Source: Natronococcus occultus SP4 (GTDB lineage Archaea > Halobacteriota > Halobacteria > Halobacteriales > Natrialbaceae). From it: a stretch of 64,000 nt of DNA. The translations under genes and the position numbers were made by a program. The stretch is taken from the NCBI RefSeq assembly GCF_000328685.1, contig NC_019974.1, positions 2,223,001-2,287,000 on the forward strand, read 5' to 3'. The first letter of the stretch is position 1, and each line of letters starts with the position of its first letter. The notes under the pieces are model-generated. The model did no database searches and was not told the DNA's origin. It saw nothing but the letters and a program-made list of their open reading frames with translations. This document shows positions 5,541 to 30,107 of the stretch, piece by piece.

Positions 5541-6461
5541 ATGCCCTCCGATCACGCGAACGCGGGTTACCGACGGCTGTTCGACCGCGAGGGATTGACC
5601 TTCGGCGCGGGCTTTCCCCTGACCGGAACGAACCGGTCGACGCCCGATCCCACGACCGAAATCGAACTCGCGACCCTCGCTGAGGAGCTGGGATTCGACG
5701 GCCTCTGGGCACGGGACGTCCCCACGTTCTGGCCGAAGTTCGGCGACGCGGGCCAGACGTTCGACACCTGGCCGTGGCTCTCCCACGTCGCGGCCCACAC
5801 CGACGAAATCGCGCTGGGTACCTCGAGCGTCGTCCTCCCGCTTCGCCACCCGCTGCACGTCGCGAAGTCGGCCGCGACGGTCGATCGCCTCTCGGACGGT
5901 CGGCTCGTGATGGGGGTCGCCTCCGGGGACCGGGATCCGGAGTACTCGGCCTTCGGGATCGACCGCGGGAGTCGAGGCGAACTGTTCCGCGAGGACGTCG
6001 ACACCCTCCGAACCGTCTGGACAGAGGACTATCCCACCCTCGAGGGCCGGTGGGGTCGCCTCGATGGCGAGCTCGACGTCGTCCCGAAACCAGTCGCGGG
6101 GACGATCCCCCTGCTGCCGACCGGAAACTCCCGGCAGGCAGACGAGTGGATCGCCGAGCACGGCGACGGCTGGCTGTTCTATCATCTGCCGGAGTCGACC
6201 CTGGAGAGTTACATCGCACAGTGGTGCGAAACCGCAGGCGACAAACCGTTCGCGATCGCGGTCCGGGTCGAGCTCGCCGAGGACCCGACCGCCGAGCCCG
6301 AACCCCTGCATCTGGGCTACCGGGCCGGCGTCGAGTGGTACCGCGACTACTTCCGCCGGCTCGAGGAGTACGGCCTCGATCACGCGATTATCGGGCTGCA
6401 AAACGAGGACCGCGAGCGGGCGTTCGAGCGGTTCGCAGACGAGATCCTCGACGAGCTATGA
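5541..6461 (+). CDS. LLM-class (luciferase-like) flavin-dependent oxidoreductase
   Basis: A 306 aa protein of the bacterial luciferase-like monooxygenase/F420 reductase fold. Typical features are the N-terminal LTFGAGFPLTG strand, LAEELGFDGLWARDV, a LGTSSVVLPLRHPLHVAKSA block, LSDGRLVMGVASGDRDPEY, and a phosphate-binding LLPTGNSRQADEWIAEHGDG near residue 195. Members use FMN or F420 to oxidise organic substrates; the substrate here is unknown. The stop codon TGA (6459-6461) directly touches the end of the tnpB element, so the element inserted exactly behind this gene without visibly truncating it. Confidence 0.88.
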   Translation: MPSDHANAGYRRLFDREGLTFGAGFPLTGTNRSTPDPTTEIELATLAEELGFDGLWARDVPTFWPKFGDAGQTFDTWPWLSHVAAHTDEIALGTSSVVLPLRHPLHVAKSAATVDRLSDGRLVMGVASGDRDPEYSAFGIDRGSRGELFREDVDTLRTVWTEDYPTLEGRWGRLDGELDVVPKPVAGTIPLLPTGNSRQADEWIAEHGDGWLFYHLPESTLESYIAQWCETAGDKPFAIAVRVELAEDPTAEPEPLHLGYRAGVEWYRDYFRRLEEYGLDHAIIGLQNEDRERAFERFADEILDEL

Positions 6462-6491
6462 CATCCTCCCTGGCGTGAACGCCGGGGTTTC
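6462..6491 (-). repeat. Right-end hairpin of the tnpB element (candidate reRNA/omegaRNA 3' end)
   Basis: The arms at 6468-6475 and 6480-6487 form an 8 bp stem with one mismatch around a TGAA loop, just downstream of the tnpB stop. A perfect 12 bp palindrome GCCTCTAGAGGC (6520-6531) lies in the last codons of tnpB. In studied TnpB systems the guide RNA scaffold covers the 3' end of tnpB and the right end, and the guide is the flanking DNA. Here that flank would be the 3' end of the luciferase-like gene. Confidence 0.55.
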
Positions 6492-6513
6492 CTCCGTGGG
6501 AGTTTCAGTCGGT

Positions 6514-7860
6514 CTAAGAGCCTCTAGAGGCAACATTCCCGTCGAAGTGGACGGTACTCGGGTCTGTGCGCTGATTTTTGGGACGATGAGAGCGTGGTAA
6601 CTCCGACCAGTCATGGTCGTCCCACTCGAACCGCACGGGCCGTGCCATCGGCCTGACTGCTTGATCTGTCTGCCGCTCCAAAAACGTCTCTGACGCCGTG
6701 AGGTCGGCGTGGCCCTCGAACCCACACGGACAGATGAGTGTGTCCTGGTGGCGCGTCGTTCGGTCTGTGGACCCACACTGCGGGCATTCTTGACTGGTCC
6801 ATGCTTCCGACCGAACCTCAACCGAGATTCCATATTCCTCGGCTGTACACGCCAGTCGTTCGGTAAACTGCCTGAACGCCCAGAAGTTGTGTGTCTTGGC
6901 GTTGGTTTCAACCGACCAGTGTGTCTCCAGCACGTCGGTTAACCTGCCGATATACACGGTATCAACGCCTTCGGCGTACAGTCGGTCTAGCAGATCACGA
7001 CACAACGCCTCTTGTGCGTGGTCGCGGCGACGGGTCCGTTTCCGATACCGTCGCCGAATACGTTCGCTACTGTATCGGCCATCTCCGAGTTTCGACTGCA
7101 ACTCGGCAATGTGGCGTGTAGTGTCGCGGAATCGCTGGAACAGGTCGCGGCCCTCATACAGATATTGCTGACCGGTCGTGGTGGTACAGGCGACGAGATT
7201 GTTCGCACCGATGTCCAGAGCGGCTTTTTCGGAAGCCAGTGGAGTGTCCCATGCATCGTCAGAAACAGTCACGGGTTGCGAAGCTCTGAACGTGTCGTCA
7301 ATCTCGTCGTACCACAAGTCCAACCGACCCTGTTTCTCGTAGTCAGGCCAGTTCGGGTCACCAGCGATTTCCAGCCGGAGACGCCCGGTGTGGTCGTATC
7401 TGTCTTTCAATTCACTTCCGACCAGTATCTCAAGCCGGGAACGGTCGCCCCACTCGACGGTGTACGAGGTGTTGCGAATGACGGTCTTGAGTTGCCGCCC
7501 GTCGTCTTCGTTGCCACGGAAGCCCGGCGGCTCGGGGTGTTCAGTGACCGACGTATCCGAATCATCGTAGTACTGCTCTTTGAGTCGGAAGAAGCCTCGC
7601 CACGCTTCTGAGTTCTTCCGAATCACCTGTTGGGCGGTAGACGCACCGAGAACGCCTTTGTACCTGCCTTCAAGTTGGCCTGTATCGGCGTCCCATACGT
7701 CCTCGCCGCCATACCCGTCCTCGTCGTTGTACCGCATGAGGCGTTCGTAGTTGGTTTGGTTCCAGAGAGCGGCAGAAGCGTCCAACAGGTCCCGGAGCAG
7801 CTGCTCTCCGCTATCGGAGAGCGGTCGCACGGTGAACATGTTGGTACGCTTCATTCCCAT
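6514..7860 (-). CDS. tnpB: TnpB-family RNA-guided nuclease homologue with altered RuvC-II motif
   Basis: A 448 aa TnpB/IS1341-type protein. The order is an N-terminal helical region, Ruv[19 protein letters not shown] with the catalytic Asp, RuvC-II in [15 protein letters not shown], a zinc ribbon (CPQCG then CPCGF) and RuvC-III in [11 protein letters not shown] with its Asp. The RuvC-II glutamate (normally in a vvvEdL context) is replaced by Gly, so either it is nuclease-impaired or the acid comes from another position. Start at 7860 (MGMKRTNMF); 7854 is also possible. The upstream in-frame extension is not family-like. Lateral origin is implied by the element ends. Confidence 0.9.
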
Positions 7861-7986
7861 TTTGATGTTTGAACTGACTCGTGTTGAAGGCCAGCCATCC
7901 GGAGTGAAAGTGAACCTGATACCGACTGGTGGAGACCCAGGCCTGGCAGTCTGGTAGTGGTTTGCCACCGAAACTGATGCGATTCA

Positions 7987-8054
7987 CGCCCTTCCTGTTC
8001 GCTCCTCGGTTCCGACAACGAATGTCGGAACACTCGTTACTCACAGGAAGGGCG
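7987..8054. repeat. Nested inverted repeat at the left end of the tnpB element
   Basis: A 12 bp perfect inverted repeat (CGCCCTTCCTGT at 7987-7998, ACAGGAAGGGCG at 8043-8054) encloses a second perfect 9 bp hairpin (GTTCCGACA at 8009-8017, TGTCGGAAC at 8023-8031, loop ACGAA). Subterminal hairpins of this sort are what TnpA recognises in IS200/IS605 elements. It could also act as a terminator or shape the 5' leader of tnpB. Confidence 0.65.
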
Positions 8055-8101
8055 GGACTCTCTCGCTATCAAAGGTAGGTCGCCGTCTCTGTCGCGGACG
8101 C

Positions 8102-27420: not shown

Positions 27421-28113
27421 ATGTTCGAACAAATTACAGACAACGACGAACGCGGTCAGGTGGGTATCGGCACGCTGATCGTGTTCATCGCGATGGTGCT
27501 GGTCGCGGCGATCGCGGCCGGCGTCCTGATCAATACGGCCGGCTCACTCCAGAGTCAGGCCTCCGATACGGGTACAGAGACCCAGCAGGCGGTGGCGAAC
27601 CAGATCGAGGTGACCCATGCAGTTGGGTACGTCGGTCACGATGGCACTGTCGCTGATGACAACACTGACGCCGATGAAGATGAGATCGGGTACGCTGACC
27701 TAATCATCAAGCAGTCGGCCGGTTCTGACGTCATCGACCTCGAGTCGATGACCGTCCAGTACACGAGTTCGTCTGCTGATGCAACGCTCGAGTATGAAGA
27801 CGACTTCGGCGATGAAAGTGGCGATTCTCTCGATGACTTCCTCACTGAGGATTCTGACGACACGTTCGCAACGATTGAGGCTGGTCAGAACTCTGACGAG
27901 GGAGAGGTTAACGTTGTTGAGGCAGGAAATGCTCTGACGGACACCAGCGATCGAGCGCTTCTCCGGCTCAACGTCGATGCGATCGAGGACGACTACGCAC
28001 TCGAGTCCGGTGACAGTGCGACGGTCGCACTGACTGACCAGTCTGGTGCGCAGTTCACCTACGGCATCACGACGCCGCCGAGCTTCGTCGATAAGGACGT
28101 GGTGGAGGTCTAA
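27421..28113 (+). CDS. Archaellin 1 (FlaB/ArlB-type)
   Basis: A 230 aa preflagellin. The short basic leader [12 protein letters not shown] is followed by [20 protein letters not shown]; the prepilin peptidase FlaK/PibD is expected to cut after the Gly. The long hydrophobic helix forms the filament core. The outer domain is acidic, and the conserved end [12 protein letters not shown] closes it. It is the first of four tandem paralogues and likely a main filament subunit. The mature chain has no N-x-S/T sequon. The frame is open upstream to about 27160, but the ATG at 27421 gives the correct signal peptide. Confidence 0.96.
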
Positions 28114-28115
28114 CC

Positions 28116-28919
28116 ATGTTCGAGCGAATCCACTCCGAGGACGAGCGCGGTCAGGTCGGGATCGGTACGCTGATCGTGTTCATCGCGATGGTGCTAGTTG
28201 CGGCGATCGCAGCCGGCGTCCTGATCAACACGGCCGGCTCCCTCCAGAGTCAGGCCTCCGACACTGGTTCGGAAACGCAGCAGGCAGTGGCGAATCAAAT
28301 CGAAGTGACTCACGCTGTTGCTGAAAACCAGTTCGAATGGGATGACGTAGACGATCCTCCAGGCGATCTATCTGATGATACTCAGGTTGAAGCCGTATCG
28401 ATCCCTGGTGACGACGTAGATACCGGGGCAGAGTACCAGGTCAACGACGAAGAGACCTATAACGAGCTTCGGCTATCGGTCAAATCGTCGGCCGGCTCTG
28501 ATGTTATCGATCTTTCGTCGATGACCGTTCAGTACACGAGCGGTGAGGACTCACACACACTCTCTCACGAGAGTCAGGTAGAGGGAATCGATAACCCAGA
28601 TACTGAACTCGCCGAGGGAGAGAGCTTAGAACCGTTCTTCGTTACCACAGAATCTACCGATCGAGACTCCGAAGAGACGTCTCTCACTGAAACGGAAGAT
28701 CGAGTTGACGTTATTATCCCACTGATTGGTGACGAAGGTGAGGCTGGTGGTGTATTGGAGAACGGTTGGACTGAAGACCAGAACCAGCCGTCCGCTCTCG
28801 AGCCTAGTGACAGCGTCTCGATTCAGCTCGTCGACCAGTCCGGTGCCGAATACACCTACGGTGTAACGATGCCCCAGACTGTCGACCATCCAGCAGAGCA
28901 ACCGGTTGTAACGGTCTAA
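28116..28919 (+). CDS. Archaellin 2
   Basis: A 267 aa preflagellin, the longest of the four. The leader [12 protein letters not shown] and core helix [20 protein letters not shown] are almost identical to archaellin 1, while the outer domain is expanded by about 40 residues with many Asp/Glu. The C-terminal [16 protein letters not shown] is conserved. Its ATG follows the archaellin 1 stop by two bases, so the genes are co-translated. No N-x-S/T sequon is present. An expanded outer domain often means a surface-exposed variable loop. Confidence 0.96.
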
Positions 28920-28928
28920 CGTGATACA

Positions 28929-29522
28929 ATGGTTAACACACAAAATTCAAACTCCGAAAATGATCGCGGTCAGGTCGGGATCGGAACGCTCATCGTGTTC
29001 ATCGCGATGGTCCTGGTCGCAGCGATTGCGGCCGGCGTTCTGATCAACACGGCCGGCTCGCTCCAGAGCCAGGCTTCCGACACCGGTACAGAAACCCAAC
29101 AGGCAGTGGCGAATCAGATCGAAGTCGTTCACGCGTATGGTGATACCGATGGAGAAGATACCGTTAACGACCTTCATCTTGTCGTGAAGAAATCCGCTGG
29201 ATCAGATGTGATCGATATGGAGTCGATGACTCTCCAGTACACGAGTGAATCCACAGCTGAGACGCTCGAATACGGTGATGCAGATGGTGACGGAGAATTC
29301 GGGACGGCTGGACTAGCGGACACCGAAGAGGACGGTACGGCACTTACCGACACTAGCGATCGGATCGAGATATCCATCGGAATTACCGGGACGTTCGATG
29401 GTGATGAAGAATTGAACTCCGGAGATAGTGCGACTATCGAATTAGTCGACCAATCCGGAGCGAAGTTCTCGTACGGTGTAACGGTTCCGGCAACGTTCGG
29501 CGGTGACGTTGTGGAGGTCTAA
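28929..29522 (+). CDS. Archaellin 3
   Basis: A 197 aa preflagellin. The leader is distinct and polar ([14 protein letters not shown]), followed by the shared [20 protein letters not shown] helix. The first roughly 180 bases of the mature region are nearly identical to archaellin 4, which points to recent duplication or gene conversion. The outer domain is shorter than in archaellin 2. The conserved ending is [12 protein letters not shown]. The start follows archaellin 2 by nine bases. No N-x-S/T sequon occurs after the cleavage site. Confidence 0.95.
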
Positions 29523-29525
29523 CTA

Positions 29526-30107
29526 ATGTTCGAAACAGTCGCAAACGACGATGACCGAGGTCAGGTCGGAATCGGAACGCTCATCGTGTTCATCGCGATG
29601 GTCCTGGTCGCAGCGATCGCGGCCGGCGTTCTGATTAATACGGCCGGCTCGCTCCAGAGCCAGGCCTCCGACACCGGTACAGAAACCCAACAAGCAGTGG
29701 CGAACCAGATCGAAGTCGTTCACGCGTATGCGGAAGATACAGAGGAGGGTCCTGACGGATTCGACGAACTTAATCTGATCGTGAAGAAGTCTGCCGGTTC
29801 GGACGTAATCGATATGGAGTCGATGACCGTTCAGTATACGGACTCGGACGACTCGTTGACTCTTGCACACGATGAGGGCTTCGAAACTGAGGCTGGTACC
29901 GATGACAGTGACGACGACGCTCTCACTGCAACTAGCGATCGGATTCAGCTAACGATCGACTTGGATGATTCTGAGGACGAACCTAACGTTCTGAGCCCTG
30001 GTGACAGCGCAACGGTCGAGCTCATTGACCAGTCCGGTGCACAGTTCAGCTACGGTGTGACGATGCCGCAGACAGTCAGTGACGATCAGACCGTCGTCGA
30101 CGTCTAA
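29526..30107 (+). CDS. Archaellin 4
   Basis: A 193 aa preflagellin, the shortest. The leader [12 protein letters not shown] precedes the common core helix. The segment through [20 protein letters not shown] matches archaellin 3 closely; the outer domain then diverges. It ends [16 protein letters not shown]. It begins three bases after archaellin 3 and is last in the operon, followed by a T-tract. Minor archaellins at such positions may serve as hook or basal subunits, but nothing in the sequence assigns that. No N-x-S/T sequon is present. Confidence 0.95.

What the first reader, a model, noticed from the sequence alone, without database searches (positions are those of the whole stretch)
6514..7860. 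TnpB with the RuvC-II glutamate replaced by glycine
RuvC-I (ALDIGANN) and RuvC-III (GHADLTAS) keep their Asp, but the strand expected to carry the catalytic Glu reads [12 protein letters not shown]. Either this is a nuclease-impaired TnpB that could act as an RNA-guided DNA binder, as in the TldR repressors derived from tnpB, or the acid has moved (for example to the Glu in DVLETHW), as proposed for some TnpB branches. The Arg after the Gly is also unexpected, since the usual residue is acidic.
Basis: partly seen in the sequence, partly recalled or inferred. Interest (0 to 1): 0.72.

Follow-up and report, generated by a model that had tools for sequence, protein, structure and literature searches.

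The report
Haloarchaeal TnpB with relocated catalytic glutamate
This is an ordinary jumping-gene RNA-guided nuclease of salt-loving archaea: the supposedly missing catalytic glutamate sits at a second, already described position in the protein, so the enzyme is most likely active and not a dead DNA binder.

Summary
On the minus strand (6514-7860) there is a full-length TnpB in which the canonical RuvC-II Glu is Gly305, followed by Arg306. It is not a defect of this copy. Gly305 is shared by all of about 80 close relatives, and all of them keep Glu352 ([13 protein letters not shown]), six residues before the first zinc-ribbon Cys. That is the published "alternative" RuvC-II glutamate (E_alt) of Fanzors and of a D-hydrophobic-G clade of TnpBs. 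In 71 TnpBs clustered below 80% identity, 36 have Gly/Ser at the canonical site and all 36 have Glu at the alternative site. The other 35 have canonical Glu, and none has Glu at the alternative site. Arg306 is at a variable position. The element looks intact: 1617 bp, exact insertion shown by empty sites in five same-genus genomes, TAM CTAC, covarying right-end hairpin, dN/dS about 0.1. This argues against a TldR-like dead repressor. Cleavage was not tested and active-site distances were not measured. Best reading: a member of a known kind, an E_alt IS200/IS605-type TnpB, widespread in haloarchaea.

The parts
6458..8074 (-). whole IS200/IS605-type (IS1341-like, no tnpA) element, 1617 bp; left end at 8074, right end at 6458
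   Evidence: Joined flanks align without a target duplication to the empty site in five same-genus genomes and one more distant genome of the same family. Relatives of the element stop matching at about 6458 and 8072-8081.
6514..7860 (-). tnpB coding region, stop at 6514-6516; the conserved start MKRTN is the ATG at 7854
   Evidence: Pfam PF01385 and PF07282, NCBIfam NF040570
7213..7215 (-). Asp216, RuvC-I catalytic Asp (ALDIGANN)
   Evidence: invariant in all 71 representatives
6946..6948 (-). Gly305 at the canonical RuvC-II Glu position
   Evidence: G in 35 and S in 1 of 36 E_alt representatives; E in 35 of 35 canonical ones
6943..6945 (-). Arg306, next to Gly305; mostly G, D or A in relatives
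   Evidence: variable position; codon AGG against GGG in the close relative L009
6925..6927 (-).
   Evidence: not conserved: E 22, D 7, S 5, R 1, G 1 of 36; K in some close relatives
6805..6807 (-). Glu352 (SEAWTSQEC), relocated RuvC-II glutamate, E_alt
   Evidence: E in 36 of 36 E_alt representatives and 0 of 35 canonical ones; matches ExxxxxxCxxC; follows predicted strand 346-351
6703..6705 (-). Asp386, RuvC-III catalytic Asp (GHADLTAS)
   Evidence: invariant in all 71 representatives
6458..6493 (-). right end: hairpin CCCCGGCG-TTCA-CGCCAGGG, then AGGATGTCAT; expected 3' end of the omega-RNA scaffold
   Evidence: 96.1% of cells paired; 7 of 8 pairs show a change on both sides in 29 relatives. 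The window copy has one C-A mismatch.
6438..6457 (-). inferred guide AGCTCGTCGAGGATCTCGTC, the flank directly after the right end
   Evidence: inferred from IS200/IS605 TnpB rules and from the boundary
8075..8078 (-). TAM CTAC, 5' of the left end
   Evidence: CTAC or CTAT directly before the left end in nearly all of about 27 relatives at different sites; boundary fixed

Best explanation
The gene is the tnpB of a haloarchaeal IS200/IS605-family element (IS1341-like: tnpB only). The protein is most likely an active RNA-guided DNA nuclease whose catalytic triad is Asp216-Glu352-Asp386. Shown here: in this lineage the canonical RuvC-II Glu is replaced by Gly305, and a Glu is fixed at the start of the loop between the RuvC strand 346-351 and the zinc-ribbon (TNB) domain, the E_alt arrangement of Fanzors and related TnpBs. 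Inferred: the protein binds an omega-RNA made from the end of its own transcript and the right end. The guide is the flanking DNA (AGCTCGTCGAGGATCTCGTC). It cuts DNA next to the TAM CTAC, which is the empty target site, and so favours retention of the element. Arg306 is a private change at a tolerant position.
For: Glu352 is invariant and Gly305 universal in about 80 close relatives. Among 71 representatives, loss of E_can and presence of E_alt agree without exception: 36 and 35, Fisher p = 4.5e-21. Scanning every alignment column, the acidic positions at 90% or more that tell the classes apart at the active site are 305 and 352; only Asp216 and Asp386 are shared by all (Glu164 in the WED/REC half is a lineage feature). 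E_alt is described as ExxxxxxCxxC in Fanzors and in a D-hydrophobic-G TnpB clade (PMC10711439), and as lying between the fifth strand and the TNB domain (PMC11423790), as in the model. The model matches TnpB, Cas12f and the mimivirus Fanzor2 9b0l. dN/dS is 0.10-0.14. Element ends, TAM and a covarying right-end hairpin are intact. A relative carries tnpA next to an E_alt tnpB (ISHhu1).
Against: No cleavage data exist here for this protein or any close relative. The AF2 model is modest (mean pLDDT 66.8; roughly 50-75 in RuvC), and no coordinates were available to measure distances between the three acids. The profile alignment to ISDra2 TnpB did not put its Glu278 opposite Gly305; that register rests on intermediate haloarchaeal sequences. 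The window copy has a private Arg306 and one mismatch in the right-end hairpin.
Confidence: 0.88

Rival explanations
1. It is a nuclease-dead TnpB that acts as an RNA-guided DNA binder or repressor, as TldR proteins do.
For: The canonical Glu is absent, and TldRs arose repeatedly from TnpB by RuvC inactivation (PMC13418256).
Against: Three conserved acids remain, with Glu352 at a known catalytic position. The change is lineage-wide and tied to gain of E_alt. Relatives of the element sit at many different sites and this site is empty in five same-genus genomes. No fixed partner gene was seen.
Confidence: 0.05
2. The catalytic Glu moved to Glu312 of DVLETHW.
For: It is acidic in this copy and in many relatives, and lies on the same segment as the canonical position.
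Against: It is S, R or G in 7 of 36 E_alt representatives and K in some close relatives, and E is equally common there in TnpBs that have the canonical Glu.
Confidence: 0.02
3. The lineage is active, but this particular copy is losing function (Arg306 beside the active site, a mismatch in the right-end hairpin, no intact tnpA in the genome).
For: Arg306 is unusual among close relatives; C-A mismatch in the hairpin; the genome's only Y1 transposase is in two pieces; single copy.
Against: The ORF is open and full length. dN/dS against the nearest relative is 0.116, no higher than between other pairs. Position 306 varies widely; Arg and Lys occur there in canonical TnpBs too.
Confidence: 0.2

Closest known systems
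E_alt TnpBs of the D-hydrophobic-G clade (PMC10711439)
   Same: RuvC-I DIG motif, no canonical Glu, Glu six residues before the first CxxC, RuvC-III Asp
   Different: haloarchaeal, tnpB-only element; second zinc pair is CxC (CPC) instead of CxxC; whether this subfamily was in that paper's tree was not checked
TnpB (VNG_RS11800) on Halobacterium salinarum plasmid pNRC200
   Same: 85.5% identical over the whole length, TVYIGGLTD and SEAWTSQEC, right end GGAGGATGTCA
   Different: Gly-Gly instead of Gly-Arg; different site; annotated only as IS200/IS605 family transposase
Fanzor1 and Fanzor2 (SpuFz1; mimivirus Fanzor2, 9b0l)
   Same: relocated RuvC-II Glu between the fifth strand and the TNB domain; bilobed fold
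   Different: eukaryotic or viral, DPG motif in RuvC-I, larger N-terminal part
ISDra2 TnpB (canonical)
   Same: overall fold, Asp pair, omega-RNA from the right end, TAM next to the left end
   Different: Glu at the canonical strand position; TAM TTGAT (from memory) against CTAC here
TldR repressors
   Same: TnpB descent, no canonical RuvC-II Glu
   Different: a complete alternative acid set and intact transposon context here

Membership tests
TnpB (IS200/IS605 RNA-guided nuclease family) | OrfB_IS605 / guided_TnpB profile plus TNB zinc ribbon, over curated cut-offs | tested here: met
TnpB (IS200/IS605 RNA-guided nuclease family) | element inserted 3' of a short TAM without target duplication | tested here: met
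   empty sites and conserved CTAC/CTAT
TnpB (IS200/IS605 RNA-guided nuclease family) | structured right-end RNA scaffold ending at the element boundary | tested here: met
   hairpin with covariation. The same hairpin may serve as single-stranded DNA for TnpA, so the RNA role is inferred; the region is not in Rfam.
TnpB (IS200/IS605 RNA-guided nuclease family) | RNA-guided double-strand cleavage | not testable with these tools
   needs biochemistry
E_alt class of TnpB/Fanzor | no Glu at the canonical RuvC-II strand | tested here: met
   Gly305
E_alt class of TnpB/Fanzor | Glu at ExxxxxxCxxC before the zinc ribbon, conserved | tested here: met
   Glu352, 36 of 36; motif
E_alt class of TnpB/Fanzor | Glu352 within metal-binding distance of Asp216 and Asp386 | not tested
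   model coordinates not available; only secondary structure seen
Fanzor / pro-Fanzor | DPG in RuvC-I | tested here: not met
   DIG
TldR | inactivated RuvC acid set | tested here: not met
   three acids conserved at known catalytic positions
TldR | association with a non-transposon gene, loss of transposon mobility | tested here: not met
   relatives at diverse sites; this site empty in same-genus genomes

The most novel reading that the evidence does not exclude
Haloarchaea hold two large, separately diversified E_alt TnpB clades that work as active compact nucleases in high salt and, like Fanzors, lack trans (collateral) cleavage. They would give prokaryotic material to test what moving the glutamate does.
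Probability: 0.3. Interest if true: 0.4.

Novelty: new member of a known kind. Interest (0 to 1): 0.17.

Why it matters
It guards against a recurrent annotation error: calling a TnpB dead because the canonical RuvC-II position lacks Glu. A check for Glu at ExxxxxxCxxC separates E_alt nucleases from true TldR-like proteins. It also shows that the E_alt type is common in haloarchaea: about 90 of 145 sampled genomes have a member of this clade, counting best E below 1e-60. Model haloarchaea such as Halobacterium salinarum carry close relatives.

Tried and rejected
Glu312 and Glu358 as the relocated acid: Glu312 varies; Glu358 is G or T in L075 and L082 and T or S in the second E_alt clade. TldR domestication: no fixed locus. 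A direct HMM alignment to ISDra2 TnpB gave an unreliable register around its Glu278, so the register was taken from intermediates. Rfam search of the window element found no family over threshold (only HgcC at 19.9 bits, gathering score 50). Viral contigs hold only one member of this clade; two other viral scans found nothing. The 2023 TnpB census (10.1073/pnas.2308224120) and the 2024 TldR paper are not held; from memory, the census reports rearranged catalytic sites in multiple TnpB branches. The tree does not decide between one and two origins of E_alt: 2 changes on the quick tree, but one clade is not rejected (p-AU 0.83).

Full report
Observation. The minus strand of 6514-7860 encodes a full-length TnpB of 448 residues, over the curated cut-offs of Pfam OrfB_IS605 and Cas12f1-like_TNB and of NCBIfam guided_TnpB. 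Asp216 (RuvC-I) and Asp386 (RuvC-III) are present. The strand that carries the catalytic Glu in canonical TnpBs reads TVYIGRLTD, with Gly305 and Arg306.

What the Gly means. Eighty related loci from haloarchaeal genomes were fetched. All that cover the site have Gly305, and all keep Glu352 in SEAWTSQEC or a close variant of it. In the 35-sequence alignment Gly305 and Glu352 are both invariant and Glu312 is not. Glu352 lies in E-xxxxxx-CxxC, the motif that defines the alternative RuvC-II glutamate, E_alt (PMC10711439). That paper separates TnpB homologues into E_can and E_alt groups and splits E_alt into a D-hydrophobic-G and a DPG clade; the protein here has DIG. A structural study of Fanzors places the Glu between the fifth beta strand and the TNB domain (PMC11423790). 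In the AF2 model a strand spans 346-351 and Glu352 follows it.

Quantified test. TnpBs were collected from the genome of the window, from other haloarchaea and from viral contigs, clustered below 80% identity and aligned. Of 71 with the region, 36 have Gly or Ser at the canonical site and all 36 have Glu at the alternative site. The other 35 have canonical Glu and none has Glu at the alternative site (mostly Pro). Fisher p = 4.5e-21 (the sequences are related, so this overstates independence). Scanning all columns for conserved acids finds Asp216 and Asp386 in both classes, the canonical column only in one, Glu352 only in the other, and one lineage feature, Glu164, outside RuvC.

The element. 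Joined flanks match an empty site in five same-genus genomes and one more distant relative. The alignments put the insertion between GAGCT and GTAGG on the + strand with no target duplication. The element is thus 6458-8074, 1617 bp, with CTAC as TAM in element orientation. Nearly all of about 27 relatives at other sites have CTAC or CTAT there. The right end GGAGGATGTCAT follows a hairpin in which 7 of 8 pairs show compensatory change across 29 relatives (shuffles and slid controls far lower). The hairpin could act as omega-RNA, as single-stranded DNA for TnpA, or as both. dN/dS against eight relatives is 0.10-0.14. These facts fit a maintained mobile nuclease and do not fit a domesticated repressor.

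Mobility. The own genome has one copy of this subfamily and many canonical TnpBs. Its only Y1 transposase match is split in two, so the copy is probably immobile now unless helped in trans. Related E_alt tnpB genes sit next to tnpA elsewhere (ISHhu1).

Known relatives. The subfamily is annotated in public records as IS200/IS605 transposase or RNA-guided endonuclease TnpB; Halobacterium salinarum pNRC200 carries an 85.5% identical protein. A second haloarchaeal E_alt clade (for example L130) ends in the Rfam RNA sot0042 (153 bits), a family that Rfam built from Halobacterium salinarum sense overlapping transcripts, now called omega-RNAs (PMC12558985).

Limits. No cleavage assay was possible. 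The model is of modest confidence and no coordinates were available, so the geometry of residues 216, 352 and 386 is inferred from conservation and from published E_alt structures. The sample is mostly haloarchaeal. That the kind is already described rests on PMC10711439 and, from memory, on a 2023 census that could not be read here.

Verdict. Observation confirmed; the dead-binder reading is not supported; the moved-acid reading is supported, with Glu352 instead of Glu312. A new member of a known kind, of low interest.

Noticed in passing
window 5541-6461 (+): The element inserted exactly at the stop codon of a luciferase-like (LLM-type) oxidoreductase gene; relatives end in TAG or TAA, here the element supplies TGA, so the protein is unchanged in length.
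   Followed up: yes
window 7957-8062: The left end holds a long imperfect inverted repeat (CCGCCCTTCCTGT ... ACAGGAAGGGCG) enclosing GTTCCGACATTCGTTGTCGGAAC, probably a TnpA-type or RNA structure.
   Followed up: no
L019, L023, L031, L035, L038, L052, L053, L069, L074, L086: MITE-like palindromic insertions (GTCGTCGGGC..GCCCGACTGCTTGAGGGA..) sit in the right-end hairpin loop of several relatives, and extra peptide segments in their tnpB may come from similar insertions.
   Followed up: no
L130:1304-1489; L007:502-670 and 2640-2823: A second haloarchaeal E_alt TnpB clade carries Rfam RF02656 (sot0042) at its 3' end (153 and 74 bits); a further sot0042 copy of 122 bits lies just upstream of the main tnpB in L007.
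   Followed up: partly
own genome G000:C1:3264426-3264784: The only Y1 transposase (IS200 TnpA) match in the genome is in two overlapping pieces, probably a frameshifted pseudogene, although the genome carries many tnpB genes.
   Followed up: partly
L117 and L138 (IMGVR_UViG_3300010222_000004): One predicted viral contig carries both an E_alt and a canonical haloarchaeal TnpB within a few kilobases of each other.
   Followed up: no
window 28001-30000: GC drops to 0.548 against about 0.67 elsewhere, a possible foreign segment.
   Followed up: no
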